Source: Phycisphaeraceae bacterium (GTDB lineage: Bacteria; Planctomycetota; Phycisphaerae; Phycisphaerales; Phycisphaeraceae). Taken from it: DNA of 11,452 bases. The position numbers and the translations under genes were made by a program. The stretch is taken from positions 1 to 11,452 of the forward strand of contig JAJDCT010000206.1 in assembly GCA_029260695.1 (NCBI GenBank), written 5' to 3'. The notes under the pieces were generated by a model, which was given only the letters and a program-made list of their open reading frames with translations, did not search any database and was not told the DNA's origin. Position 1 is the first letter of the stretch, and every line of letters begins with the position of its first letter. Shown here one piece after another: positions 122 to 11,452 of this stretch.

Positions 122-1837
122 ATGAGTTATCCCTCATGTAGCACCACGTTTTCCCCCCGGTGGCTGGCGACCGTCTGCCTGGCGGGGATGTGTTTGGCCT
201 GGGCGGGCACCGACGCTGTGGCGCTGACCAGCGCCGAGCACGACGCGGCGATCGCGGGCGTTGACGCATTTCTTGACAGGCAGATGGACCGATTTGTTCC
301 GGTCCCCAACGACTACCCGGCCAAGTTCTCTGACGCGCAGCTGATCCAGACCTACGACGTACCCGTATCCGATCCTAGCTTCGGGCCGCTGTTCCACCGC
401 GCAGATATCTACGACACGGCCTTGGCGGCGATCTACTACACCCGCCGTGGCGACCTGGACCGCGCACGAAAACTGCTCGACGGGATCCGCTTTGTGCAGG
501 ACAACGACCCGTTCAAGGATCCGAATAACGCCGCGATCGGCGACGGACGGCTGCGCACCTCGTACTGGGCAAACGACCTGCTCGCACCCGACCGCGTGTC
601 ACCGTCGATCGATACGTCCGATGCCGCGGTCGGCAATACCGCCTGGGCCGGGATCGCTCTGACCCACTACTACAAAGCAACCGGCGAGCAACCTTATCTC
701 GACGCCGCCAAGCGCGCCGCCGACTGGATCATCGACCATACCCAGCAGAGCAACGCTGACGGATTCGGAGGCTACTCCCTGGGGTTGGACGCAGCTACTA
801 ACCCGATCGCCGGCACGACCCAGGCACGCAGCACGGAAAACAACATCGATGCCTACGTCCTGGCAATGAACCTTGCGGCGTTGGATGCCGGTGACCCCAA
901 GTGGTCCGCCATGGCCCAGCATGCGCAACAGTTCGTGCAGGTGACCTTCAACAATCAGCCCGGTCAGGAAAAGTATTGGACCGGCACACAGCCCGGGCCC
1001 GGGGGGCAAACGGAGCTTGCGTTCTTCCCGGTCCCGACCGACACCCAGACCTGGACCGCCTTGGCTGGGATCGACACGGCCACCCGGCTCGACCAGACCA
1101 TACGCTGGGTTTCCGACTCACCCGCCAACGATCCGGCCGGCCTGAAGGTCAGCGATGACATCGGCGATGGCCGAGTTTTCGACGGGCTACGGTTTAGTTC
1201 AGGCGGGCAGCACCTGCAGGTCGAAGTCACCGGCGGCTACGCGCTGGCGCTCTGGGCCGGGCAGCAGGCGGGCTGGCTGACCGAAGGCGCAGGCGATCCT
1301 GTGGGCCGATGGTCCAACGAATTACAAAGCCTGCTCGACAACCTCGACGCGATCCGCACCACAGCCGACGGCAGCGACCCCGCGGGCGTCGGACTTGTAG
1401 CAACACCCTTGGCGGCGGGTGCCCCCTCCGGGTTCAGCTCCTCCACATACCCGAACCTGCGCCACGTCGCCAGCAGTGTGTGGACAGGTCTGGCGCTGCT
1501 CGCGTCACACCCCGACGCACTGCGGCGCGATCCGTTGGCGAACCCGCTGGCGGCGCTGACCCCGAGATTAACCGGCGACCTCAACGGCGACGGTTTCGTC
1601 GGCATCGAAGACCTGAACATCATCTTGGGAAACTGGAACCAGAACGTCACACCCGGCGACCCTCTGGCTGGCGACCCCACCGGTGACGGGTTCGTTGGCA
1701 TCGAAGACCTCAACGCCGTGCTCGGCGAGTGGAACGCAGGCACCCCGCCGAAGATTGAGTTGCCACCAAACTTACCCGAGCCCGCGACCTCAACACTGTT
1801 TTGCTTGGGTCTGTTTGCCCTGGGCCGACGCCGATAG
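122..1837 (+). CDS. Secreted six-hairpin (alpha/alpha toroid) glycosidase-like protein with dockerin-like repeats and PEP-CTERM tail
   Basis: A 571-residue exported protein. Residues 1-34 form a signal peptide (hydrophobic LATVCLAGMCLAWAG, probable cleavage after DAVA). Residues of about 35-465 are rich in paired helices (AGIALTHYYKATGEQ, YLDAAKRAADWI, STENNIDAYVLAMNLAAL, DTQTWTALAG), the style of six-hairpin glycosidase-like folds, so a role on polysaccharide is likely but no catalytic pair can be named. Residues 484-540 hold two Asp-rich dockerin/EF-hand-like loops. The tail from residue 552 is PEP, hydrophobic LFCLGLFALG, then RRR: a PEP-CTERM signal for exosortase sorting. No clear Shine-Dalgarno precedes the ATG, but the signal peptide begins properly there. 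The neighbouring sugar importer fits a role in releasing oligosaccharides. The fold call is moderate; export and sorting are firm. Confidence 0.7.
   Translation: MSYPSCSTTFSPRWLATVCLAGMCLAWAGTDAVALTSAEHDAAIAGVDAFLDRQMDRFVPVPNDYPAKFSDAQLIQTYDVPVSDPSFGPLFHRADIYDTALAAIYYTRRGDLDRARKLLDGIRFVQDNDPFKDPNNAAIGDGRLRTSYWANDLLAPDRVSPSIDTSDAAVGNTAWAGIALTHYYKATGEQPYLDAAKRAADWIIDHTQQSNADGFGGYSLGLDAATNPIAGTTQARSTENNIDAYVLAMNLAALDAGDPKWSAMAQHAQQFVQVTFNNQPGQEKYWTGTQPGPGGQTELAFFPVPTDTQTWTALAGIDTATRLDQTIRWVSDSPANDPAGLKVSDDIGDGRVFDGLRFSSGGQHLQVEVTGGYALALWAGQQAGWLTEGAGDPVGRWSNELQSLLDNLDAIRTTADGSDPAGVGLVATPLAAGAPSGFSSSTYPNLRHVASSVWTGLALLASHPDALRRDPLANPLAALTPRLTGDLNGDGFVGIEDLNIILGNWNQNVTPGDPLAGDPTGDGFVGIEDLNAVLGEWNAGTPPKIELPPNLPEPATSTLFCLGLFALGRRR
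1571..1741 (+). repeat. Paired dockerin-like calcium-loop repeats within the secreted protein
   Basis: Two copies of the motif GDGFVGIEDLN lie 96 bases (32 residues) apart, at residues 489-499 and 521-531. The first is preceded by D486-L-N488 and the second by D518-P-T520, giving the Asp/Asn spacing of calcium-binding loops, and each is followed by a helix ending in W-N (LGNWN, LGEWN). This is the type I dockerin pattern seen in many exported planctomycete-group proteins that carry PEP-CTERM tails. In cellulosomes dockerins bind cohesins; no cohesin gene is visible here, so the partner is unknown. The two copies are highly similar at DNA level, consistent with duplication. Confidence 0.7.
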
Positions 1838-2208
1838 AGTCCGCATCAACTCCCCGGGATAGCCAACCGCTGGCCGGAATACTTATTCAAGTCATCCACC
1901 GTTTGTGCAGGATGTGCTGGGGCAACTTGGACCCGTGTGATTCACAGTCGATGGGGTAGAGGGTGCCCATGGGAACACAGATTGCTTTGCATTAAAATTT
2001 GCATTCCAATGAACCTAGTGCCAACTACTCGAAATCGACATGAGTATATCTAAGTAGTGTATGTAAACATATTTATATATAAATCACGCCGCCCATGAGA
2101 TTTTCGGCGGCTCGATTCATCCAGATTATTTGCGTGAAAATTGCATTATCTATCTTGACTCGTCAGGCGGATTAATCTCTAATGATGCGTCCATTGTCGA
2201 GGGCAAAC
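1838..2208. other. AT-rich intergenic region upstream of the LacI-family gene
   Basis: I see no gene here. From about 1980 to 2160 the base composition becomes much more AT-rich than the flanking genes. The stretch has direct repeats of TTTGCATT at 1986-1993 and 1998-2005, with a third TTGCATT at 2141-2147, and a small palindrome TATGT-AA-ACATA at 2060-2071. A 6-bp hairpin (2088-2093 with 2106-2111) is too weak and lacks a T run, so it is not called a terminator. The region probably carries the repressor's promoter and possibly an autoregulatory operator, but I could not pick a convincing -35/-10 pair. Confidence 0.4.
2199..2203 (+). promoter_or_regulatory. Ribosome binding site deciding the LacI-family start
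   Basis: GAGGG sits five bases before the ATG at 2209. The in-frame upstream ATGs at 2182 and 2185 have no comparable site at good spacing. This supports 2209 as the start, which also gives the usual short N-terminus before the LacI helix-turn-helix. Confidence 0.55.
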
Positions 2209-3270
2209 ATGTCGGTGAATCAGCAAACCATCGCCGAGAAACTGGACCTGTCTGTCTCGACGGTTTCGCGTGCGCTGCGCAACGACCGCGCCATCCCAGC
2301 TACGACCCGGGCGCGTGTGATCCGCGCCGCCAGTGATCTGGGTTACCGCCGTCGGCCCGATGGCGGGTCGACTTCGCAGCGTTCGGCGCAGGCCCCAAGT
2401 AAGACAGTGATCGGCGTGTTTGCCCCCGTGGTGGGGGGGTTGAACTGGTCCGCTGCGGGCACGCACGAGGCCGGGCATTTCATGCTCACGGGGATCAGCG
2501 CCGCCACCGCGGCGCGGGGCGTCTACATGCTCTTCCACGGTGTGCGCAACGACGATCTAGCCAACCTGCTCTTGCCTGACAATCCAGATTCGGCCCTAAG
2601 AAACGAATCCCTCGCCGGTGCCGTGCTACTCTACAGCCACCCACACCCGGTAGCTGAACGGCTGTTTGAACTGATGCCCTGCGTCACTATCGTCGACCGA
2701 TATAGCGGGCTGAAGATGGATTGCGTCGGGGAAGACGCCGACTCGGGCATCGACGCGATGGTGCAGCACCTGTGTGATTTGGGTCACAAGCGCATCGGGT
2801 TTGTACACGGCGATTCCCTCGGCGAGTGGGTCGTGGACCGCTTCGCCTGCTACGTCAAGTCGCTGACACGTCGGGGCATCCCGGTAGACCCTTCGATTGT
2901 GCTGGGCGTGTACGGTGAGCGTGTCGCGATCAAGCAGCGCGCCGATTGGTTGCTCGACCAGACCAAGCGAGGCGCGACGGCGTGGATGTGTTCTAACGAC
3001 CTGACCGGTTACGAGGTCTGTCGGGCCTTGAAAGCCAAGGGTTTAAGCATCCCCGGTGACGTGTCGGTCACCGGGTTCGACGGGGTGGAGCCGGTCGGCG
3101 GTATGCCGCCTTTGACGACCGTCAGCGCACCGCTGGTAGAGTTGGGCGAGGAGGCGGTCGATCGTTTGTTGTTCCGGATCGCCAACCCGACGGATTCGAT
3201 CCGTAACATCCAGTTGGCTTGCCGGATGACGGTCGGTCAGACTACTGCGGAAGTGCGCGTGCCCGCCTGA
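2209..3270 (+). CDS. LacI-family transcriptional regulator
   Basis: A 353-residue DNA-binding regulator. The N-terminus holds the LacI helix-turn-helix (QQTIAEKLDLSVSTVSRALR, about residues 5-24), followed by the hinge-helix stretch with RARVIRAASDLGYRRRP. The rest is a periplasmic-binding-protein-like sensor domain: a hydrophobic strand opening with VIGVFAP, GHKRIGFVHGDS in the middle, and the typical GDVSVTGFDGVEP with a following PPLTTVSAP near the end. Such proteins bind a sugar or sugar derivative and release or tighten on palindromic operators. It lies 182 bases upstream of a sugar ABC importer on the same strand, so local control of that operon is the natural inference; the effector is unknown. 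A longer form starting at 2182 (nine extra residues) is possible but lacks a ribosome binding site. Confidence 0.9.
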   Translation: MSVNQQTIAEKLDLSVSTVSRALRNDRAIPATTRARVIRAASDLGYRRRPDGGSTSQRSAQAPSKTVIGVFAPVVGGLNWSAAGTHEAGHFMLTGISAATAARGVYMLFHGVRNDDLANLLLPDNPDSALRNESLAGAVLLYSHPHPVAERLFELMPCVTIVDRYSGLKMDCVGEDADSGIDAMVQHLCDLGHKRIGFVHGDSLGEWVVDRFACYVKSLTRRGIPVDPSIVLGVYGERVAIKQRADWLLDQTKRGATAWMCSNDLTGYEVCRALKAKGLSIPGDVSVTGFDGVEPVGGMPPLTTVSAPLVELGEEAVDRLLFRIANPTDSIRNIQLACRMTVGQTTAEVRVPA

Positions 3271-3305
3271 CCGCATGACGTAGACTTGAGAATCTTGCCG
3301 AAGGC

Positions 3306-3336
3306 TTGACAGACAAAATGGAATGCGTGTGACTAT
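3306..3336 (+). promoter_or_regulatory. Possible sigma70-type promoter of the ABC importer operon
   Basis: A perfect TTGACA hexamer lies at 3306-3311. The best -10 candidate is GACTAT at 3331-3336, with a 19-base spacer and only three matches to TATAAT. The -35 is good but the -10 is poor. The position between the repressor stop and the importer start is sensible, and the -10 overlaps the first CTATGAAA repeat. Confidence 0.25.
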
Positions 3337-3465
3337 GAAACCCACCATCACCCGCCTGACACGCCCAGCCACGCGAACACTTTTCATAGGATCCGTATTG
3401 ACCTTGTATCCCAACAACCTTGACCTTAATCCACCTAACCCACAGAGCAGATATGGCTATGAAAA
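3333..3465. repeat. Three CTATGAAA repeats, two direct and one inverted, around the importer start
   Basis: CTATGAAA occurs at 3333-3340, its exact reverse complement at 3382-3389, and CTATGAAAA again at 3457-3465, matching the 9-base reverse complement at 3381-3389. The last copy overlaps the start of the solute-binding protein gene. Sites of this kind near a LacI-regulated operon could be operators or a leader stem. The copies are real; their function is inferred. Confidence 0.35.
3398..3427 (+). repeat. Direct repeat TTGACCTT, 22 bases apart
   Basis: TTGACCTT occurs at 3398-3405 and 3420-3427, 22 bases start to start, about two helical turns. It lies just upstream of the solute-binding protein gene. 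It may be a regulator-binding pair, or chance similarity to -35 elements; no matching -10 follows either copy. Confidence 0.25.
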
Positions 3466-4859
3466 GATCAATCCTGGGATCCGGCTATCTGTCGCCGGGT
3501 AGCGCGATCGTCATGCTGATCGCTGCGGTGTCTACCGTGGTGGTCCTGGTCTGGCCGATCGAAAAGCGGCAGGGCCTGGAGTTCTGGACGTTCTCCAAGA
3601 CCCACTCCCAGATGTACGCTGAGCAGCTTAAGACCTGGAATGCCCAGGCCGACGCTGAGGGCGCGCACCCGCGGGTCAACCTGTTCGTGATCGACATGAC
3701 AGCGCTGGTCCGCCGGACGCTTTCATCGTTCTGGGCAGACACACCCGTAGCGGACATGATTGAGGTCGAGGGCAACACGATCGGGCGGTACGTCGCCGGG
3801 CCGCTGGAAGATGTTGGGTTTGTCGACCTGACAGATCTATTGCAAGAGGAAGGTATATACGACCTGGTCAACCCACCGTCGTTCAGCCTTTGGACCAGCC
3901 GGGGCCGCGTGTTCGGGCTGCCGCACGACGTCCACCCCGTGATGCTGTGCTACCGGGCGGATATCGTCGAGGAGGCGGGCATCGACGTGAGCGAGATCGA
4001 GACGTGGGATGACTTCGCCCGCGTGCTCGCGCCGCTGATTAAGGACCTCGACGGGGACGGCCGACCCGACCGGTACCTACTGAATACCTGGTACACCAAC
4101 ACCGAATGGATCGAGCCGCTGATGCTTCAGGCTGGGGGCGGGACGTTCGACGAATCTGGTGAGTTGATCGTGGCGTCTAAAGCAAACGCTCTGGTGATCT
4201 CGACGATCATCCACTGGTGCTTCGGTGAGGGACGTATCGCGATCGACGCCCCGGAGTTCAGCCCGGCTGCAAACCACCTGAAGATCGAGGGTCGGGTGGT
4301 CGCGTCGCTGATGCCGGACTGGCTCGCGTCGACCTGGAAGAACGACATGCCTCAGCTCAGCGGCAAGCTGAAGCTCATGCCTCTGCCTGCGTGGGAACCC
4401 GGCGGGCGGCGCACATCCGTTTACGGCGGGACCATGATCGCGATCCCCAAGTCCACCAAGAACTTCGACGAGGCCTGGGCGTTCGTCAAGCACCTGTACC
4501 TGTCGGAGGAGCTCGCGGAGGAGTTGTACCGGACGACCAACATCATCACACCGGTGCGACGTTATTGGGATTCGGATTACTTCAACGAGCCGGACCCCTA
4601 CTTCCAGGGGCAGGCCCCCGGGGCGATGTATATCGCTCTGGCACCGGACGTGCCGCCGCGGACCTCCTCACCGTTCCGCCCGTTGGCGATGACCCGCATA
4701 GGTGAGGCGATTAACGATCTACGCAAGTACGCACAGGCAAACGATATCTACGAGGTTGACGGGTTGATGCCCGAGGCCCTGAGGTTGCTTGAAGAAGCTG
4801 AGCGGCGAGTCCGCGCGGAGATGAGCAGGAACGTCTTCCTGACGGAGGTGACGCCATGA
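3453..4859 (+). CDS. ABC sugar importer solute-binding protein (family 1, MalE-like), N-terminally anchored
   Basis: A 468-residue extracytoplasmic binding protein that would capture a sugar and deliver it to the two permeases downstream. The N-terminus has a basic start (MAMKRS) and a hydrophobic helix at about residues 17-34, with neither a lipobox cysteine nor a clear AxA cleavage site, so it may stay tethered by this helix. The mature part opens with LEFWTFSKTHSQMY, typical of family 1 binding proteins, and later shows YGGTMIAIPKSTKNFDEAWAF, also characteristic. Residues 198-206 (DLDGDGRPD) look like a calcium loop. The start at 3453 (or 3459) is preferred over an upstream in-frame TTG at 3420, which would add a hydrophilic leader. 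Its stop overlaps the next gene (ATGA), showing tight coupling. The substrate is unknown; a di- or oligosaccharide is likely. Confidence 0.85.
   Translation: MAMKRSILGSGYLSPGSAIVMLIAAVSTVVVLVWPIEKRQGLEFWTFSKTHSQMYAEQLKTWNAQADAEGAHPRVNLFVIDMTALVRRTLSSFWADTPVADMIEVEGNTIGRYVAGPLEDVGFVDLTDLLQEEGIYDLVNPPSFSLWTSRGRVFGLPHDVHPVMLCYRADIVEEAGIDVSEIETWDDFARVLAPLIKDLDGDGRPDRYLLNTWYTNTEWIEPLMLQAGGGTFDESGELIVASKANALVISTIIHWCFGEGRIAIDAPEFSPAANHLKIEGRVVASLMPDWLASTWKNDMPQLSGKLKLMPLPAWEPGGRRTSVYGGTMIAIPKSTKNFDEAWAFVKHLYLSEELAEELYRTTNIITPVRRYWDSDYFNEPDPYFQGQAPGAMYIALAPDVPPRTSSPFRPLAMTRIGEAINDLRKYAQANDIYEVDGLMPEALRLLEEAERRVRAEMSRNVFLTEVTP
4844..4850 (+). promoter_or_regulatory. Strong ribosome binding site of the MalF-type permease
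   Basis: GGAGGTG lies five bases before ATG 4856, inside the end of the binding-protein gene. The second permease gene has an almost identical copy before its start. Confidence 0.75.
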
Positions 4860-5737
4860 GTCGAGGCACCCGTACTCCATGGTGGGCTCCGTACCTGTTC
4901 ATCGCACCGTTCGCGGTCGCCTTCTGTGTGTTCACGGCCTACCCCCTGTTCGAGTCGATCGTCATGGCCTTCCTCCAGACCAGCGGGCCCAAACGTTCAG
5001 AATATGTCGGGCTGAGTAACTTCTCCTGGATGTGGGAGGACCCCGACTTCCACAAGGCGGTGCGCAACACCGTGATCTTTGCGTGCGGTTCGATCTTTAT
5101 CCAGTTGCCATGCTCGCTGGGTTTGGCGCTGCTGCTGAATCGGCCTGACATCAAAGGCCGGGCGTTCTGGCGGATGATCTTCTTCGCTCCGTCGCTGGTC
5201 GGGTTGGCGTTTGTCGCGATCCTTGCAGGGCTGGTGTTTGAGAAGAACACCGGTCTATTGAACGTGGCGCTGCACCAGGTGATCTGGTTCGACCCCGAGT
5301 TCCCCTGGCTGCAGGAGTATGTGATGCCCGCGCTGATAATCTCGGCGTTCTGGATGTACGTCGGGTTCAACATGGTCTACTTCCTCGCGGCGCTTCAGAA
5401 CGTCAACACGGACCTGCTCGAGGCGGCCCAGGTCGACGGTGCCGGGCCGCTGCATCGGTTCAGGCATGTGACGATCCCCGCCATCCGCCCTGTTGCCACA
5501 TTCGTCATCTTGCTTTCCTTGATTGGTAGTTTCCAGCTCTTCGAGTTGCCTTACCTGCTGCTGAATAACAGCGGCGGGCCTGACAACCAGGGGCTGACCA
5601 TCGTGATGTATCTGTATCAGAAAGGCTTTGACTGGGGCGACCTGGGCTACGCCAGCGCGGTCGGGTGGGTTCTGGCGCTGCTGCTGAGTGTGTTTGCCAT
5701 AATCCAGCGGATACTGTCCAAGACGGAGGTGGCCTGA
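4856..5737 (+). CDS. ABC sugar importer permease, MalF/UgpA-type
   Basis: A 293-residue inner-membrane protein with six hydrophobic segments (about residues 11-35, 70-95, 105-127, 153-180, 207-232 and 262-287). The cytoplasmic EAA loop is clear: E189-A-A, D194-G195 and the closing I207-P208. This is the surface that docks the ATPase subunit. The opening PYLFIAPFAVAF followed by YPLFESIVMAF is typical of the first permease of carbohydrate importers. Its ATG overlaps the binding-protein stop, and its TGA overlaps the ATG of the second permease, so the three form one translationally coupled unit. No nucleotide-binding subunit is encoded in the window, so energy must come from an ATPase encoded elsewhere, as is common for this family with shared MsmK/UgpC-like ATPases. 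Confidence 0.92.
   Translation: MSRGTRTPWWAPYLFIAPFAVAFCVFTAYPLFESIVMAFLQTSGPKRSEYVGLSNFSWMWEDPDFHKAVRNTVIFACGSIFIQLPCSLGLALLLNRPDIKGRAFWRMIFFAPSLVGLAFVAILAGLVFEKNTGLLNVALHQVIWFDPEFPWLQEYVMPALIISAFWMYVGFNMVYFLAALQNVNTDLLEAAQVDGAGPLHRFRHVTIPAIRPVATFVILLSLIGSFQLFELPYLLLNNSGGPDNQGLTIVMYLYQKGFDWGDLGYASAVGWVLALLLSVFAIIQRILSKTEVA
5725..5730 (+). promoter_or_regulatory. Ribosome binding site fixing the MalG-type permease start
   Basis: GGAGGT lies six bases before ATG 5737, in a context (GACGGAGGTG) nearly identical to that before the first permease. It rules against an upstream in-frame start at 5665, which would add 24 non-membrane residues read from inside the previous gene. Confidence 0.75.
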
Positions 5738-6576
5738 TGTTTCGTAAGCTCGCGGTTTATACGCCCCTGACCTTATTTGCGGCGATCACCCTGGTACCCT
5801 TCTTGTACCTGGCCTGCTCGTCGTTGAAGACCAACGATGTCTTTTTCTCCTCACCGTTTTTGCCGATCGACTCGGCGTGGTGGGACATCAACTGGTCCGG
5901 CCTGACGCTGGATAACTTCAAGCGGCTGTTCCAGGAGGCCGGCATCGGCCGGGCGATCGTCAACTCGTTCTTCTTTGCATCGACGATGGCGGTCCTGGGA
6001 ACCCTGGGCAGTGCGATGGGCGGTTACGCGCTGGCGAAGTTCAACTTCCTCGGCCGGGGGATGTTTACTAACATCGTCCTGACCGCGCTGATCATCCCGG
6101 GCGCTCTGTTGCTGGCGCCGGGGTACAAGGTGCTCTACACCCTGGGCCTGTTGGATAGCTACGCCGGTCTGATCCTCCCGGGCGTTGCACCTGCGTTCGG
6201 GGTGTTCCTGTTCCGCCAGGCGTTCGTCAGCGGCCTGCCGACTGAGATGATGGAGGCCGGGCGTATCGATGGCTGCGGTGAAGTCCGCATGTTCTTCCAA
6301 CTCGCGTTGCCGATGGTCCGTCCGATGGTGGGCGCGTTCCTGCTGATCACCTACCTGGGCACATGGAACAACTTCATCGGCCCGCAGATCGTCCTGCAGA
6401 CACCAGAAAAATACCCCCTGGCGGTCGCGGTCGCCCAACTCCGCGGGCCCTACGGCTCGGAATACGGCATGATCATGGCAGGCACCATCGTAGCCATCCT
6501 GCCCGTGCTCATCCTCTTCCTGATGCTCCAGAAAGACTTCATCGCCGGCCTCACCGCCGGGTCTGTCAAGGGATGA
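5737..6576 (+). CDS. ABC sugar importer permease, MalG/UgpE-type
   Basis: A 279-residue inner-membrane permease that pairs with the preceding one to form the transport channel. It begins MFRKLAVYTPLTLFAAITLVPFLYLACSS in two parts: a short basic start, then the first membrane helix, followed by the SLKTNDVF segment usual for MalG-type subunits. The EAA loop is at residues 173-192 (E-A-G-R-I-D-G ... L-P), preceded by GLPTEMM. The C-terminus FIAGLTAGSVKG is the standard ending of this family. The gene shares one base with its predecessor (TGATG). It is the last gene of the coupled set: a 110-base gap follows before the isomerase-like gene, with no convincing terminator in it, so read-through is possible. 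Confidence 0.93.
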   Translation: MFRKLAVYTPLTLFAAITLVPFLYLACSSLKTNDVFFSSPFLPIDSAWWDINWSGLTLDNFKRLFQEAGIGRAIVNSFFFASTMAVLGTLGSAMGGYALAKFNFLGRGMFTNIVLTALIIPGALLLAPGYKVLYTLGLLDSYAGLILPGVAPAFGVFLFRQAFVSGLPTEMMEAGRIDGCGEVRMFFQLALPMVRPMVGAFLLITYLGTWNNFIGPQIVLQTPEKYPLAVAVAQLRGPYGSEYGMIMAGTIVAILPVLILFLMLQKDFIAGLTAGSVKG

Positions 6577-6686: not shown

Positions 6687-7991
6687 ATGACCGACCCCAA
6701 CCTCTCCGCCACCGTCCACCGCATCGTCGCCGACCAGCCGGTGACCGACCTGCACACCCACTGCTTTGCTCCCCGCTTCGGGCACTCCACGGACGGGACC
6801 GGCAGGGGGTTGATGCTCTGGGGGATCGACGAGCTGGTGACGTATCACTACCTGATCGCCGAGGTATTCCGCGTCGTTACGCCCGACAAGCTGCCGTACG
6901 ACCATTTCTGGAAGATGAGTCAGACCCAACGGGCCGACCACATATGGAAGCACCTGTTCGTCGATCGCACCCCGATCAGCGAAGCCTGCCGGGGCGTGCT
7001 TACCACGCTTAGTAAACTCGGGCTGGACCCCAACGAGAAGACGCTCGATCCATACCGCAAATGGTTTGCAGACCAGGACGCCGACGCCCACGTCGATAAG
7101 GTGATGCAAATCGCCAACGTCGATTCGATCACGATGACCAACGAGGTCTTCGACGAGCACGAACGGCAACTCTGGTTGGATAACCCGTCGCTGGGCGACG
7201 ACCCAAGGTTCCGCCCGGTAGTACGGATCGACCCGATGGTGTGCGATTGGCCTGACGCGAGTGAAAAACTCTCCGCGTGGGGCTACCAAGTCAACAGCGA
7301 TCTCACAGCCGGTGCGATAGACGAAGCCAAGCGGTTCCTAAACGACTGGATCGACCGGACGCGCCCCGCCTACGTCGCCGCAAGCCTGCCGCCGACTTTC
7401 ATGTACCCCGCCTCCAGTGTAAAGAACTCGCCTGCCTCCCGGGCCACCAATGAAACCGCATTGACGCAGGTCGTCTTGCCTGTCCTGGAAGATCGGGGTT
7501 TATCCTTCGCGATGATGATCGGCGTACACCGTGGCGCAAACCCATCCCTGCGCAGCGCGGCGGATATCTCTGGTAAAGCGGACACGCAAGCCGTCGCCAA
7601 CCTCTGCGCCGCGTTCCCCGGCAACCGATTCCTGGTCACGATGCTGTCCCTGGAAAACCAACACGAGCTCTGCGTCGCCGCCCGCAAGTTCGGCAACCTG
7701 ATGCCCTTCGGGTGCTGGTGGTTCCTCAATAACCCTTCGATCATCGAAAGCATGACCCGCATGCGCCTCGAGATGCTCGGGACCGGGTTCATCCCGCAGC
7801 ACTCCGACGCCCGTATACTGGACCAGCTTATCTACAAGTGGGACCACTCCCGACGAGCCATCGCCAATGTGCTGACCGAAAAATATGACGGCCTGGCGCG
7901 GGCCGGCTACCGGGTCACCGAGCACACGATCCGAAGCGACGTCCAGCGGCTGCTGCGAGATAACACCCGCGCGTTTTGCCAAACGCGATGA
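6687..7991 (+). CDS. Uronate isomerase-like (UxaC/COG1904-type) amidohydrolase
   Basis: A 434-residue cytoplasmic protein with no signal peptide. It resembles uronate isomerase, which interconverts D-glucuronate with fructuronate or D-galacturonate with tagaturonate. Visible landmarks, in order: the metal-type HxH at H23-T-H25 (TDLHTHCF), FRPVVRIDPMV in the middle, the histidine of MMIGVHRGAN (H281), FGCWWFLNNP resembling the FGSGWWFND region of UxaC, and S-D374-A-R376 matching the D-S-R catalytic region. It is somewhat shorter than classical UxaC (about 470 residues) and the spacing differs, so it may be a divergent paralogue with another sugar-acid substrate. Its place after a sugar importer with a LacI-type regulator supports catabolism of an imported uronate. 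No other uronate-pathway enzyme is in the window. Confidence 0.72.
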   Translation: MTDPNLSATVHRIVADQPVTDLHTHCFAPRFGHSTDGTGRGLMLWGIDELVTYHYLIAEVFRVVTPDKLPYDHFWKMSQTQRADHIWKHLFVDRTPISEACRGVLTTLSKLGLDPNEKTLDPYRKWFADQDADAHVDKVMQIANVDSITMTNEVFDEHERQLWLDNPSLGDDPRFRPVVRIDPMVCDWPDASEKLSAWGYQVNSDLTAGAIDEAKRFLNDWIDRTRPAYVAASLPPTFMYPASSVKNSPASRATNETALTQVVLPVLEDRGLSFAMMIGVHRGANPSLRSAADISGKADTQAVANLCAAFPGNRFLVTMLSLENQHELCVAARKFGNLMPFGCWWFLNNPSIIESMTRMRLEMLGTGFIPQHSDARILDQLIYKWDHSRRAIANVLTEKYDGLARAGYRVTEHTIRSDVQRLLRDNTRAFCQTR

Positions 7992-8187: not shown

Positions 8188-8787
8188 CTAATGTCGGAAG
8201 TGCCTGTGGTAGAAGTAATAGTCGTACGGCCTTGGGTATCCGACATAGTAGTTGTCGTGTCGATATGCCGGAGGGGCTATGCGATCGAACGTTGCGCTTA
8301 AGTAATAGGATCGGCCCTCGTGTTCGACTGCCCACCTGAGGTTCAGGCCGTTGAGTTCGAATGCTTTTGGATGTTCGGTTTCAGGGAATGGAAAGATCAA
8401 GGTGACCCGTGCCGTCTGCTCCGGCTCGACACGGATACTTTGGCCTGTCTGGTCTGGATCGGGGAATCGTTGTGCGTTCCCCGTAAAGAGCGCTGCCGTG
8501 GCAGGATCGAACGCGATGGTCTGCTTGGAGGTGTTGTCGAAAAGGATTGCGGCTTCGACGAACGAACGGTTGTTGGCCTCTTTTGTGGGTCGGCGTACGC
8601 CGATGATGCTGCTGAGCATCCGAAGCGGTGGAGAGTCCGGGTCGTCTCCGAATTGAATCGCCGTCACGTTTGGCCTGGGTTGATAGGCGTATCGGGAGTC
8701 GTACGCGGAGCACCCACCGACCAGCCAGAGACAGGCGATCAGAAGTACGGTCGCGAACCGCCGGGTGTTCTCTTTGATAACTATCAT
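8188..8787 (-). CDS. Predicted lipoprotein of unknown function with a Tyr/His-rich C-terminal tail
   Basis: A 199-residue exported lipoprotein. The N-terminus is basic, then hydrophobic (FATVLLIACLWLVGGC), with a lipobox ending at C26 (V-G-G-C), so it should be lipidated and membrane-attached. Residues of about 45-165 alternate polar and hydrophobic residues (FVEAAILFDNTSKQTIAFD, then TARVTLIFPFP), suggesting a beta-sandwich like those of small envelope lipoproteins. The last 25 or so residues are crowded with Tyr and His (YRHDNYYVGYPRP, YYFYHRHFRH), which could contact metal, cell wall or another protein. I do not recognise the family. An AAGGGA-like site precedes the ATG at a somewhat long distance. 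The gene is on the same strand as the upstream cytochrome but 211 bases away, probably with its own promoter. Confidence 0.78.
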   Translation of the reverse strand: MIVIKENTRRFATVLLIACLWLVGGCSAYDSRYAYQPRPNVTAIQFGDDPDSPPLRMLSSIIGVRRPTKEANNRSFVEAAILFDNTSKQTIAFDPATAALFTGNAQRFPDPDQTGQSIRVEPEQTARVTLIFPFPETEHPKAFELNGLNLRWAVEHEGRSYYLSATFDRIAPPAYRHDNYYVGYPRPYDYYFYHRHFRH

Positions 8788-8998: not shown

Positions 8999-11176
8999 TC
9001 AGTCTTTCCCCGTGGGGTGGCAGCTCAGGCAGGCAGGGCTCGACCAGTTGTATCCGCCAACCTCATCGTGTTTATCGTTCATCTTGGACTGACGGTGTTC
9101 GTGGCAGTGGGTGCAACTGAACACACTCTGGTTGGTGGGGTTCAGGTGGCAGTCGTTGCAGTCAAGATTTTTGTGATCGCCGCTGTTGATCGGGAATGTG
9201 TGGTTGAAGCTCGCGCCTTGCCATGAGTTCGTACCGTTGTGGCACTGTGTGCAATCAGTGCTGAACCCGCTGGCTGCGTGGTTGGGGTTGTTAACGCCCT
9301 GGTAGTCCGAGAGGTGGCAGTCGACACAATTGGAGGAGAGTCCTTGGAAGTTACCGCCGACGTGGCAGTCGTTGCAATTCAGGCCGCCGTGACCGCCGTT
9401 GAGTGGGAATGAATTGGTATGGGTGAACGAAGCGCCCTGCCATGAGTTCGTCCCGTTGTGACACTGCGTACAGTCGGTGCTGAACCCGCTGGCCGCGTGG
9501 TTGGGGCTGTTGGTCGATTGGAAATCACTGATGTGGCAGCTGACGCAGTCGGTAGACAGGCCTTGGAAGTTGCCGCCGACATGGCAGTCGTTGCAATTCA
9601 ACCCGCCGTGCCCGCCGTTGAGTTGGAATGAGTTGGGGTGGTTGAAGGTAGCGCCCTGCCAGGAGTTGGTGTTCTTATGGCACTGCTTGCAATCGGTGCT
9701 GAACCCACTGGCGGCGTGGTTGGGGCTGTTGGTCGCCTGGAAATCGCTGATGTGACAACTGACACAGTCTGCGGACAGGCCCTGGAAGTTGCCGCCGACG
9801 TGGCACTCCGTGCAGTTCAGCCCGCTGTGCGCGCCGCTGAGCGGGAAGTTATTGGTGTGGTCAAAAGTTGCGCCTTGCCAGGAGTTCGTGCCGTTGTGGC
9901 ACTGCTTGCAGTCGGTGCCGAACCCGCTGGCCGCGTGGTTGGGGCTGTTGGTTGCCTGGAAATCGCTGATATGGCAACTCACGCAGTCGGTAGACAGGCC
10001 CTGGAAGTTGCCGCCGGTGTGGCATTCTGTGCAGTTCAGCCCGCCATGTCCACCGTTAAGCGCAAATGAGTTGGGGTGGTCGAAAGTCGCGCCCTGCCAG
10101 GCGTTGGTGTTCTTGTGGCACTCCATGCAATCGGTGCTGAACCCGCTCGCTGCGTGGTTTGGGCTGGTGGTGGATTGGAAGTCGCTGATGTGACAGCTCA
10201 CGCAGTCGGTGGAGAGTCCCTGGAAGTTGCCGCCGACATGGCAATCGTTGCAATCGAGTCCACCGTGCCCACCGTTAAGCGCAAATGAGTTGGGGTGGTT
10301 GAATGTTGCGCCTTGCCAGGAGTTGGTGTTCGAGTGGCACTCTTTGCAATTCGTGCTGAACCCACTGGCGGCGTGGTTGGGGCTGTTGGTGGCTTGGAAA
10401 TCGCTGATGTGACAACTGACACAGTCGGTGGAGAGTCCCTGGAAGTTGCCGCCGGTGTGGCATTCGTTGCAGTTCAGACCGCCGTGCCCGCCTGTCAACG
10501 GCATGGTGTTGGGGTGGCTGACCGTGGCGCCCTGCCATGTGATGGGGCTGTGGCAGTCCTGGCAGTCGGTGCTGAACCCGCTGGCCGCGTGGTTGGGTGC
10601 GCTGGTCGCCTGGAAGTCGTCGTTGTGGCAGTTAATACAGCCGACATCGAGCCCGGAGAAGTTGCCGGTCTGAGCGCCCTGGTGGCAATCGATGCATTCG
10701 GTGGCGGCGTGTGCGCCGATCAGCGGGAAGCGTGTGCGGTTGTGGCTGGCTATGGCGTTGGTGGGTCGCCATGACAGCTCGTCGTGGCAATCGATACAGT
10801 TGACTCCGAGCCTGCCCTGGTGCTTGTCGATGTGGCAGCCCGCGCACCCCCGCGCGGCAAACTGCGCAACGGGGCCGCGGTCGTTGTGACAGCGTAGGCA
10901 CTGGGCATCTTCGTGGGCACCGTTCAGGGCTACGCCGGTCTCTTTCTCGTGGTCGAATATGAAGTCTGTTTTGAGCGTGTTCCAATTCTCACTCACGTGG
11001 CATAGCGAGCAATCGCCGGGGAAGGTGTCGTGTGGGATCACCAGGCCTTCCTGCTTGTTCCAGTCCTGCCTCGGCTGGACCCGTGTGCATGAGGCCCAGA
11101 CCACCAGCAGCAGGAGTGCCAGGGCCACGTTGCGGTGCGTTTTGATCCATCGCGCTAGGTTGGTGTGTTTTTTCAT
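8999..11176 (-). CDS. 28-heme multiheme cytochrome c with nine three-heme repeat units
   Basis: A 725-residue exported cytochrome, inferred to carry electrons in or across the cell envelope. The N-terminus is a signal sequence (RNVALALLLLVVWASC); C30 could be lipidated, though W at -3 makes the lipobox imperfect. I count 28 CxxCH heme-attachment motifs: nine units of three, then a final CLSCH. Each unit runs CxxCH, W, a F/S-x-H position, G-x-H, CxxCH, a CxxCH about 16 residues later, then a further His (N-H-A-A-S-G-F in the central units). Outside the motifs there are 28 such His, one per heme, which fits bis-histidine ligation. Units three to eight are nearly identical; the first two and the last are more diverged. 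The C-terminus (CTHCHEHRQSKMNDKHD, then CLSCHP) looks like a capping module. The gene starts 5 bases after a beta-barrel gene, so the two products probably act together. Confidence 0.93.
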   Translation of the reverse strand: MKKHTNLARWIKTHRNVALALLLLVVWASCTRVQPRQDWNKQEGLVIPHDTFPGDCSLCHVSENWNTLKTDFIFDHEKETGVALNGAHEDAQCLRCHNDRGPVAQFAARGCAGCHIDKHQGRLGVNCIDCHDELSWRPTNAIASHNRTRFPLIGAHAATECIDCHQGAQTGNFSGLDVGCINCHNDDFQATSAPNHAASGFSTDCQDCHSPITWQGATVSHPNTMPLTGGHGGLNCNECHTGGNFQGLSTDCVSCHISDFQATNSPNHAASGFSTNCKECHSNTNSWQGATFNHPNSFALNGGHGGLDCNDCHVGGNFQGLSTDCVSCHISDFQSTTSPNHAASGFSTDCMECHKNTNAWQGATFDHPNSFALNGGHGGLNCTECHTGGNFQGLSTDCVSCHISDFQATNSPNHAASGFGTDCKQCHNGTNSWQGATFDHTNNFPLSGAHSGLNCTECHVGGNFQGLSADCVSCHISDFQATNSPNHAASGFSTDCKQCHKNTNSWQGATFNHPNSFQLNGGHGGLNCNDCHVGGNFQGLSTDCVSCHISDFQSTNSPNHAASGFSTDCTQCHNGTNSWQGASFTHTNSFPLNGGHGGLNCNDCHVGGNFQGLSSNCVDCHLSDYQGVNNPNHAASGFSTDCTQCHNGTNSWQGASFNHTFPINSGDHKNLDCNDCHLNPTNQSVFSCTHCHEHRQSKMNDKHDEVGGYNWSSPACLSCHPTGKD
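9200..10639 (-). repeat. 219-base tandem repeat encoding the cytochrome's heme units
   Basis: The same word GGAAGTT (GGAAGTTA/G on the plus strand) recurs at 9346, 9565, 9784, 10003, 10222 and 10441, exactly 219 bases apart each time. A second landmark, CTGAACCC, recurs with the same period from 9261 and makes its last step, to 10572, in 216 bases because that unit lacks one residue. Each repeat encodes 73 residues with three heme motifs and three extra His. The array covers about six and a half copies, with small differences between copies that mostly sit at third codon positions or in the two variable residues of CxxCH. Confidence 0.93.
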
Positions 11177-11181
11177 AGCGG

Positions 11182-11452
11182 TTAAAACCGGCGAGAGATA
11201 AACGTGCCCAGTGTGTATTCATCATCCGTGTCACCGAAGTAGTGGTCTAAAGTCACGCTGTAATACCACTTGTCTGCGGACCAGCTCACGCCGCCGCGGA
11301 CCAGTTGCCGGACGAGTGATTCCGTTCCACCCGCCACGCTTTCGATGTCGTAGCTGAAGAACTCATAGCCAAGAAACACGTCCGCGTCCCGGATCGTCTT
11401 GCGGGCCTCGGTACGGACGCCTTCGCCGGAGTTGAAGCTGCCTTCGGTGAAA
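11182..11452 (-). CDS. C-terminal part of an outer-membrane beta-barrel protein (5' truncated by window edge)
   Basis: The minus-strand frame is open from the right edge to TAA at 11182-11184, giving the last 89 residues. They show alternating hydrophobic/polar strands rich in aromatics (DADVFLGYEFFSYDIES, VRGGVSWSADKWYYSVTLDH, EYTLGTFISRRF) and end in phenylalanine, the C-terminal signature used by the BAM machinery to insert outer-membrane barrels. A GTG inside the frame at 11377-11379 could be misread as a start, but the coding pattern continues past it to the edge. Only 5 bases separate its stop from the cytochrome start, so the genes are almost certainly co-transcribed. By analogy with MtrB/PioB-type pairs it may be a porin sheath for electron transfer, but too little is visible to assign a family. 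Confidence 0.72.
   Translation of the reverse strand, partial: FTEGSFNSGEGVRTEARKTIRDADVFLGYEFFSYDIESVAGGTESLVRQLVRGGVSWSADKWYYSVTLDHYFGDTDDEYTLGTFISRRF

What the first reader, a model, noticed from the sequence alone, without database searches (positions are those of the whole stretch)
8999..11176. 28-heme cytochrome built of nine triheme units, with one extra histidine per heme
Counting by eye gives 28 CxxCH motifs and 28 non-motif histidines at fixed places (F/S-x-H, G-x-H and a third His per unit, the last supplied by DKHD). This exact match implies that all hemes are bis-His ligated in a regular chain, like a modular molecular wire. Long multiheme cytochromes are known in metal-reducing bacteria and some form extracellular filaments. 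One with this regular 73-residue triheme module in a planctomycete-like genome may be undescribed in function.
Basis: partly seen in the sequence, partly recalled or inferred. Interest (0 to 1): 0.8.

Follow-up and report, generated by a model that had tools for sequence, protein, structure and literature searches.

The report
Outer cytochrome of an electron conduit
This gene encodes a protein with 28 heme groups that is probably the outermost wire of a set of neighbouring proteins carrying electrons through a bacterium's cell envelope; similar gene sets occur in many planctomycetes and Bacteroidota, including one cultured species, and what they do is untested.

Summary
In detail: 725 aa, 28 CxxCH motifs (shuffles average 0.37). 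Past the signal there are 29 free histidines, not 28. Layout: lipobox-like Cys30; N-cap (7 hemes, 7 His); six 73-residue triheme units; C-cap (3 hemes, 4 His). Bis-His ligation is well supported by sequence.

The protein ends a conserved operon: fused ferredoxin-FAD/NAD(P)-cytochrome b membrane protein; 20-29-heme cytochrome (MHC1); barrel-like protein; this cytochrome (MHC2). In 121 relatives, reductase, barrel and MHC2 were found only in the same 9 genomes. Bacteroidota have the same set, e.g. on Emticicia oligotrophica plasmid pEMTOL02. MHC1 has 20, 23, 26 or 29 hemes in 85 of 86 untruncated copies; long MHC2 has 13-64, 3n+1 in 45 of 51. In 17 of 47 planctomycete loci MHC2 is only the 7-heme N-cap, followed in 15 by an 11-heme cytochrome.

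Best reading: a PCC3-like porin-cytochrome conduit with a dedicated NAD(P)H-type input, a periplasmic wire, a heptaheme outer-membrane piece and a length-variable surface wire. Direction and substrate are unknown. New variant of a known kind; filament formation is not supported.

The parts
8999..11176 (-). MHC2: 28-heme c-type cytochrome, 725 aa
   Evidence: 28 CxxCH; Pfam Cytochrome_C7 in 10 stretches, E 5.9e-40; 3189 proteins at E <= 1e-3 among 8000 scored candidates
11087..11176 (-). residues 1-30: signal sequence ending in Cys30, the only cysteine outside heme motifs (lipobox-like WASC, Trp at -3 atypical)
   Evidence: Cys at this place in the planctomycete orthologs printed; a loose lipobox pattern fits 31 of 85 homologs with both caps; the three Bacteroidota MHC2 printed have ordinary signal peptides. 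Lipidation is inferred
10517..11086 (-). residues 31-220: N-cap, hemes 1-7 with seven distal His (49, 76, 88, 119, 145, 156, 196)
   Evidence: exists as a separate 7-heme protein in 17 loci, 48-58% identical, seven His at matching offsets
9203..10516 (-). residues 221-658: six consecutive 73-residue triheme units (F-x-H or V-x-H, G-x-H, CxxCH, CxxCH, PNH, CxxCH), hemes 8-25
   Evidence: unit number varies between homologs in steps of three hemes
9002..9202 (-). residues 659-725: C-cap, hemes 26-28 with four candidate His (659, 668, 694, 703)
   Evidence: similar final spacings (15, 28) recur in homologs
11182..11451 (-). last 89 residues of the barrel-like protein of the operon, cut by the contig end
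   Evidence: 92% identical to residues 471-559 of the barrel-like protein of G004; no Pfam or NCBIfam match
8188..8787 (-). 199-aa probable lipoprotein (signal LVGGC) downstream of MHC2
   Evidence: syntenic with the 207-aa protein of G004; only sub-threshold DUF4352

Best explanation
The protein is the terminal, outer-membrane/cell-surface cytochrome (MHC2) of a trans-envelope electron conduit. Proposed path: NAD(P)H in the cytoplasm -> FAD and Fe-S domain -> two b hemes in the fused inner-membrane domain -> MHC1, 20-29 hemes, crossing the periplasm -> heptaheme N-cap of MHC2 at or inside the barrel-like protein in the outer membrane -> triheme units of MHC2 as a bis-His wire reaching outwards, ending in the C-cap, which meets an extracellular partner. 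Shown by sequence: operon, co-occurrence, motifs, bis-His pattern, narrow MHC1 size classes, variable MHC2 size, the free-standing N-cap. Inferred: barrel fold, lipid anchor, which piece sits in the barrel, that the repeats are outside, heme contacts, NAD(P)H use and outward flow. My odds: surface end of a conduit 0.8; N-cap in or at the barrel with repeats outside 0.6; outward flow from NAD(P)H 0.55.
For: Co-occurrence: reductase 9, barrel 8 and MHC2 8 of 121 relatives (E <= 1e-100, 1e-10, 1e-30), all within the same 9 genomes and none in the other 112; the two gaps (G001, G002) lie at contig ends. Five of the 9 are of the window's genus, so these are 5 genera of 81, not 9 independent cases. 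Own genome: a reductase fragment at the end of contig C80, syntenic with G004. First gene: Fer4, Pyr_redox_3 (E 4e-42) and two WX3HX13H motifs with [STA]GxxGR between, in 119 of the 120 listed homologs, the signature printed for the PCC3/PCC4 inner-membrane proteins. Bacteroidota: of 40 loci chosen by the inner-membrane protein, 37 hold the reductase and 33 the barrel (one only a 130-residue piece). MHC1: 20 (35), 23 (33), 26 (15) or 29 (2) hemes in 85 of 86 untruncated copies; in 51 paired loci s.d. 2.8 hemes for MHC1, 13.6 for MHC2 (13-64). A review (passages read) estimates about 27 hemes to cross a ~200 A periplasm. Swap: in 17 of 47 planctomycete loci MHC2 is only the N-cap, followed in 15 by an 11-heme protein. 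Cytochrome c biogenesis genes adjoin in some (ResB in G004, ccsA in Emticicia).
Against: No structure: heme distances and the barrel fold are unmodelled. The barrel-like protein matches no family. MHC1 and the rest of the barrel were not found in the window's own assembly, so the full operon is seen only in relatives. The three Bacteroidota MHC2 starts printed have no lipobox, so lipid anchoring is not general. 6 of 51 long MHC2 break the 3n+1 rule (diheme repeats) and a 38-heme protein in L059 has another N-terminus and was not classed. One untruncated MHC1 (L044) reads as 15 hemes. Two of 40 Bacteroidota loci (L045, in a 3.9-Mb contig, and L060) have the inner-membrane protein but no cytochrome nearby, and L083 has the reductase with no MHC1 or barrel found downstream. 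ccsA and the lipoprotein were found in only 4 of 44 Bacteroidota-set loci. The second Fe-S motif has His for one Cys, and Emticicia's first motif has Ser for one, so the cluster content is uncertain. Copies from one genome or genus are not independent. No redox, expression or localisation data were available.
Confidence: 0.72

Rival explanations
1. Same anatomy, opposite direction: an electron-uptake conduit in which an extracellular donor (Fe(II), Mn(II), reduced humics or a neighbour cell) feeds electrons inwards to the respiratory chain, as proposed for PCC3.
For: PCC3 was proposed in iron oxidizers (passages read); all 9 carriers searched have a COX1-family (heme-copper oxidase) gene, so an oxidant is probably at hand.
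Against: The dedicated NAD(P)-type flavoprotein domain would have to be reduced uphill by such donors, and inward electron flow works against an inside-negative membrane potential (both inference). NAD(P)H activity of that domain is untested.
Confidence: 0.3
2. MHC2 stays in the periplasm: both cytochromes form a periplasmic capacitor or bridge, and the barrel-like protein is an ordinary porin.
For: Bacteroidota MHC2 starts printed are plain signal peptides; capacitor-like roles have been suggested in print for very large MHCs (passages read).
Against: Linkage to the barrel-like gene; MHC2 ranges over 13-64 hemes while MHC1 of the same operons stays within 20-29, not expected if both span the same gap; N-cap alone in 17 loci, with an 11-heme protein after it in 15.
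Confidence: 0.15
3. MHC2 polymerises into a cytochrome filament like OmcS, OmcE or OmcZ.
For: Long regular heme protein; one spare conserved His in the C-cap (29 for 28 hemes) could ligate a neighbour.
Against: No PDB sequence match named as a filament cytochrome; length is already varied within one chain; it is tied to a barrel-like gene and a periplasmic wire.
Confidence: 0.05
4. A catalytic multiheme enzyme rather than a wire.
For: Many multiheme cytochromes are reductases (established knowledge); the 11-heme protein of the other subtype could be one.
Against: Each heme has a conserved distal His candidate, leaving no obvious open site; enzyme-family models (DmsE, NrfH, HmcA) score far below cut-off.
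Confidence: 0.04

Closest known systems
PCC3 porin-cytochrome clusters (He et al. 2017, PMC5566968, passages; PMC10734462 and PMC12442390, passages)
   Same: Porin, very large surface MHC, 21-27-heme periplasmic MHC, inner-membrane protein with two WX3HX13H and SGXXG; few residues per heme (24.8 here)
   Different: In the passages PCC3 is a four-gene set found in Proteobacteria; here a ferredoxin-FAD/NAD(P) reductase is linked or fused, the periplasmic MHC counts 20/23/26/29 rather than 21/24/27, and the hosts are Planctomycetota and Bacteroidota. Direct homology to PCC3 proteins was not testable
PCC4 (same paper, section 16 read)
   Same: Porin, periplasmic MHCs, an inner-membrane protein with the same motifs, other redox proteins incl. 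an Fe-S gene in one subgroup; that subgroup includes Planctomycetes
   Different: MHCs of 4, 5 and 10 hemes and no extracellular MHC
PCCs with a nearby ferredoxin-NADP+ reductase in karst MAGs (PMC13264449, section 18 read)
   Same: Ferredoxin-NADP+ reductase gene beside a porin and a large cytochrome, in 7 of 11 clusters of its first group; two PCC-bearing MAGs are Planctomycetota
   Different: There the cytochrome is a 4-5 kb decaheme protein; the section names no triheme repeat, 20-29-heme partner or fused cytochrome b. Planctomycetota PCCs were also reported in PMC10732223 (passages read), without details there
MtrCAB / OmcB conduits
   Same: Periplasmic cytochrome, barrel, surface cytochrome
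   Different: MtrB_PioB model found in 0 of 14 carriers; DmsE/MtrA model 36.7 bits against a cut-off of 192.2
Geobacter triheme 'nanowire' cytochromes (TIGR04257; PDB 3ov0, recalled to be GSU1996)
   Same: Tandem triheme c7-like units; best PDB profile match 3ov0, E 4e-8; TIGR04257 41.8 bits against 40
   Different: Those are periplasmic, without a barrel, with a His-Met heme per unit (all recalled); here Met lies only at 1, 225, 351 and 699; the 85%-identical G004 ortholog scores 36.9, below cut-off
Undescribed cytochromes with up to 112 hemes in activated-sludge MAGs (PMC11495043, passages read)
   Same: Bacteroidota and Acidobacteriota, very long MHCs, speculated extracellular transfer or capacitor role
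   Different: No operon or repeat rule in the passages read; whether they are this family was not tested

Membership tests
Porin-cytochrome conduit (general) | Outer-membrane barrel gene next to multiheme cytochrome genes | tested here: inconclusive
   A conserved barrel-like gene is adjacent, C-terminal Phe in at least 90% of 72 aligned homologs, but it matches no family and no fold could be predicted
Porin-cytochrome conduit (general) | Periplasmic plus surface multiheme cytochrome | tested here: inconclusive
   Two MHC genes present in 6 of 6 near relatives with enough flank, L020-L025, one MHC2 cut by a contig end; their location is inferred, not tested
PCC3 | Inner-membrane protein with two WX3HX13H motifs and SGXXG | tested here: met
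   10 of 10 loci tested and 119 of 120 listed homologs, SGXXG relaxed to [STA]GXXGR; number of membrane helices not computed
PCC3 | Periplasmic MHC with 21, 24 or 27 hemes (Gallionellaceae) | tested here: not met
   20, 23, 26 or 29 in 85 of 86 untruncated copies, 15 in one: similar size, different remainder modulo 3
PCC3 | Sequence homology to PCC3 proteins of Sideroxydans or Leptothrix | not testable with these tools
   No named PCC3 sequence was reached; plasmid searches gave small IMP-plus-MHC cassettes
MtrCAB | MtrB_PioB barrel (PF11854) | tested here: not met
   0 of 14 carrier genomes; the call's 14 control genomes hold no strong positive (1 match, below cut-off), so its sensitivity was not shown. 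The window-type barrel itself has no Pfam match
MtrCAB | MtrA/DmsE decaheme subunit | tested here: not met
   TIGR03508 36.7 bits for the window MHC2 and 47.8 for G004 MHC1, cut-off 192.2
Geobacter c7 nanowire cytochromes | TIGR04257 triheme domain | tested here: inconclusive
   41.8 bits (cut-off 40) for the window protein, 36.9 for its G004 ortholog
Geobacter c7 nanowire cytochromes | One His-Met heme per domain (recalled) | tested here: not met
   Met only at 1, 225, 351 and 699; three distal His candidates per unit; 298 of 1276 homologous units contain some Met
OmcS/OmcE/OmcZ filaments | Sequence relationship to a filament cytochrome | tested here: not met
   3 and 7 PDB sequences at E <= 0.01 with sequence and profile; none named as a filament cytochrome
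OmcS/OmcE/OmcZ filaments | Polymerisation with continuous heme stack | not testable with these tools
   Structure jobs interrupted, then tool switched off

The most novel reading that the evidence does not exclude
A quinone-independent, NAD(P)H-driven extracellular reductase: one membrane-bound flavo-Fe-S-cytochrome b protein, a periplasm-spanning 20-29-heme wire and a surface wire lengthened in three-heme steps (up to 64 hemes), exchangeable at the surface end for an 11-heme head on a common heptaheme outer-membrane connector, in bacteria with heme-copper oxidases. Its inner-membrane or reductase gene occurs in about a tenth of sampled Bacteroidota (40 of 395) and Planctomycetota (44 of 392) species.
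Probability: 0.35. Interest if true: 0.82.

Novelty: new variant of a known kind. Interest (0 to 1): 0.64.

Why it matters
Very large multiheme cytochromes keep appearing in genomes of bacteria not known for metal respiration, without a tested function in the papers I read. Here one is placed in a defined operon with a probable electron source, a simple length rule and a natural swap that points to which part belongs to the outer membrane. The operon sits on a plasmid of a cultured strain (Emticicia oligotrophica DSM 17448), so the question whether such Bacteroidota exchange electrons with their surroundings could be tested directly.

Tried and rejected
Stand-alone nanowire and enzyme readings were put last after the operon and ligand counts. 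Assembly artefact (collapsed or expanded repeats) was considered: the 28-heme count recurs in another genome, G004, at 85% identity. Within the gene, equal-length units are 77-85% alike at DNA level, about as alike as to G004 units at the same position (77-86%), so the units probably recombine; not pursued. A search for a proteobacterial PCC3 through plasmid records gave small IMP-plus-MHC cassettes near hydrogenase or metal-related genes, a Pseudoalteromonas reductase with no cytochrome annotated nearby, and weak MHC1 matches, most of them in sphingomonad plasmids, that I did not open. The class-wide search found MHC2 in 3 of 298 genomes, own included. Ten paper searches gave no description of this operon in the listings and passages seen; supplements were not readable, and preprints and most subscription papers are not held.

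Limits of the counts: the 120 MHC2 homologs are the best 120 of 3189, limited by the tool to 0.55-1.75 times the query length, so longer ones are missing there. 40 of the 66 places were fetched (rows 2-41); 39 of the 40 hits were fetched and the 40th was already held as L002. L003, L004, L005 and L026 came from cytochrome searches, so their cytochromes are by construction, as is the reductase in the planctomycete loci fetched. L006 (partial operon) and L007 (other context) were left out. Contig ends cut some loci (L038, L043, L053, L055, L061, L074 and others), which biases against long MHC2. In one search the C-cap test wrongly accepts the 7-heme proteins; one search excludes them. In one search the L025 MHC1 was hidden by a longer false ORF; one search recovers it. 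In one search the third His was sought at a fixed offset from the wrong side (193 of 1276); one search repeats it from the other side.
Full report
What is there. The ORF at 8999-11176 (minus strand) encodes 725 residues with 28 CxxCH motifs; residue shuffles give 0.37 on average and 3 at most in 2000. Cys30 is the only other cysteine and sits in a lipobox-like place. Past the signal there are 29 histidines outside heme motifs. By position they fall out as 7 for the 7 hemes of an N-cap, 18 for the 18 hemes of six units of exactly 73 residues (221-658), and 4 for the 3 hemes of a C-cap. In 26 aligned homologs the weakest is H145, His in 21 of 26; the others are His in 23-26.

Family. The protein search gave 3189 proteins at E <= 1e-3 among the 8000 candidates scored; the best 120 are listed. 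Of these 120, 85 have both caps, and 84 of those 85 have 3n+1 hemes, 28 to 49; the tool's length limit excludes longer ones. In the 120 proteins 1276 triheme units were found, all with free histidines in the expected segments. That test is loose; positions are the better evidence: nine residues before the third motif in 1263 of 1276, five before the next unit in 1112, sixteen to eighteen after the start of the third motif in 1231; shuffled segments give 83 and 85 for the first two. This is good sequence evidence for bis-His ligation. It does not show that the hemes touch.

The operon. The window is a whole contig and the upstream gene is cut off: 89 residues of a barrel-like protein, 92% identical to the C-terminus of G004's. 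In six relatives with enough flank (L020-L025) the order is: an approximately 765-residue protein with 4Fe-4S ferredoxin, FAD/NAD(P) oxidoreductase and cytochrome-b-like parts; a 20- or 23-heme cytochrome (MHC1); a barrel-like protein of about 560 residues; this cytochrome (MHC2). In G004 a small lipoprotein follows and a ResB cytochrome-biogenesis gene lies divergently upstream. In the window's own genome the first 288 residues of the reductase lie at the end of another 3.1-kb contig, syntenic with G004; MHC1 was not found.

Linkage. Among 121 relatives the reductase was found in 9, the barrel in 8 and MHC2 in 8, all within the same 9 genomes and in none of the other 112 at the thresholds used; the two absences (G001, G002) are at contig ends. 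Five of the 9 belong to the window's genus; one further congener (G003), 92% complete, has none of the three. A COX1-family oxidase gene is present in 9 of 9 carriers.

Spread. A protein search of plasmids (E <= 1e-20) hit one record, Emticicia oligotrophica DSM 17448 plasmid pEMTOL02, with ccsA, inner-membrane protein, NAD(P) protein, 23-heme MHC1, 40-heme MHC2, barrel-like protein and lipoprotein in a row. The inner-membrane protein was found in 40 of 395 sampled Bacteroidota genomes. Of those 40 loci, 37 hold the reductase and 33 the barrel-like gene (one a 130-residue piece); most misses are at contig ends, but L045 and L060 have no cytochrome at all nearby. In Planctomycetota the reductase was found in 44 of 392 genomes, some matches being unfused copies; 40 of the 66 places were fetched. 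One of them, L083, shows no MHC1 or barrel downstream.

Two lengths. In 86 untruncated MHC1 copies (42 in the Bacteroidota set, 44 in the Planctomycetota set) the count is 20, 23, 26 or 29 in 85; L044 reads as 15 and lacks the usual N-terminal spacing. In 51 loci with a complete MHC1 and a complete long MHC2 of both caps, MHC1 has s.d. 2.8 hemes (20-29) and MHC2 13.6 (13-64); 45 of the 51 MHC2 are 3n+1, and the six exceptions carry diheme repeats, which also occur in a few that fit the rule. A review estimates about 27 hemes for a 200-A periplasm (passages read). I read this as MHC1 spanning the periplasm and MHC2 having a free end.

The swap. In 17 of 47 planctomycete loci MHC2 is a 7-heme protein with the spacing of the window protein's N-cap (37, 18, 16, 34, 19, 25; one or two residues off in L113 and L114) and 48-58% identical to it. 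The seven histidines stand at the same offsets in 15 of 17 and move with their heme in L113 and L114; 12 of the 17 have one to three further histidines. The protein ends 10-20 residues after heme 7 in 16 and 74 after it in one. In 15 loci a large 11-heme protein follows; L113 stops at a contig end and L114 shows none in the stretch fetched. The 11-heme protein has c3/c7-type domains and a partial match to ExtM far below its cut-off. Thus the N-cap can stand alone, and repeats plus C-cap can be replaced by another head. This is my main argument that the N-cap is the outer-membrane connector and the repeats the surface extension. It is an inference.

Electron source. The first gene has two WX3HX13H motifs with [STA]GxxGR between them in 119 of the 120 listed homologs, the signature printed for the inner-membrane proteins of PCC3 and PCC4. 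In Bacteroidota it is a separate protein of about 290 residues; in Planctomycetota it is fused to the ferredoxin-FAD-NAD(P) part. A GxGPxG and a GGGDSA motif are present in the five fused proteins tested; the second Fe-S motif has His for one cysteine in all five, so the cluster content is uncertain. NAD(P)H as donor, and outward flow, follow from family knowledge and are not tested.

Relation to known systems. The closest kind is PCC3. Gene content, sizes and the inner-membrane signature agree; heme counts of the periplasmic cytochrome differ (21, 24, 27 in Gallionellaceae; 24 in a Sideroxydans) and PCC3 is printed as a four-gene set without a reductase. PCC4 shares the inner-membrane signature and reaches Planctomycetes, but has small cytochromes and no surface one. 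Sequence homology to PCC3 could not be tested, so I do not file it as PCC3. The MtrB-type barrel model found nothing in 14 of 14 carrier genomes. A 2026 karst metagenome paper already noted ferredoxin-NADP+ reductase genes near seven of eleven clusters with a large decaheme cytochrome, and PCCs in Planctomycetota, so that coupling is not wholly new. Very long cytochromes in Bacteroidota have been noted as undescribed. In ten paper searches and the passages opened I saw no description of this operon, of the 20/23/26/29 rule or of the heptaheme swap; supplements, preprints and most subscription papers were out of reach.

Verdict. A real, conserved and probably functional conduit component; a new variant of a known kind. 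Structure, location, direction and substrate remain open.

Noticed in passing
window 2182-6576 (+): LacI-type regulator, solute-binding protein and two sugar-type ABC permeases (UgpA/UgpE-like, below cut-off) in a row; looks like an ordinary carbohydrate uptake operon.
   Followed up: partly
window 6687-7991 (+): 434-aa protein with VTDLHTHCF near its start, amidohydrolase/uronate-isomerase-like by eye (recalled), but without a Pfam or NCBIfam match above cut-off.
   Followed up: no
window 122-1837 (+): 571-aa protein with weak dockerin and PEP-CTERM matches near its end and a weak GH127-like stretch, all below cut-off.
   Followed up: no
L089-L095, L100, L104-L106, L108, L109, L112-L115: Second subtype of the operon: free-standing heptaheme protein (17 loci) followed in 15 by an 11-heme protein (open frames of about 800-1270 residues), probably a different terminal head.
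   Followed up: partly
L076, L077, L080, L084-L088, L096, L103, L110, L111: Some planctomycete MHC2 proteins use diheme repeats (spacing about 23, 25) in place of triheme ones, as if the middle heme of each unit was lost.
   Followed up: no
L051, L059, L061, L064-L066, L069, L070, L072: Some Bacteroidota loci carry short 9-10-heme cytochromes instead of, or beside, the long one.
   Followed up: no
L045, L060, L083: Homologs of the inner-membrane or reductase protein without the rest of the operon nearby.
   Followed up: no
L027, L028: Plasmids of Methylophaga pinxianii and Alteromonas macleodii hold a small cassette: 2Fe-2S protein, inner-membrane protein 26-30% identical to the Emticicia one, cytochrome; near metal-related or hydrogenase genes.
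   Followed up: partly
L026 869-3460: Next to the Emticicia operon, a divergent block with c-type cytochrome, YceI, DUF5777 barrel and Rieske proteins.
   Followed up: no
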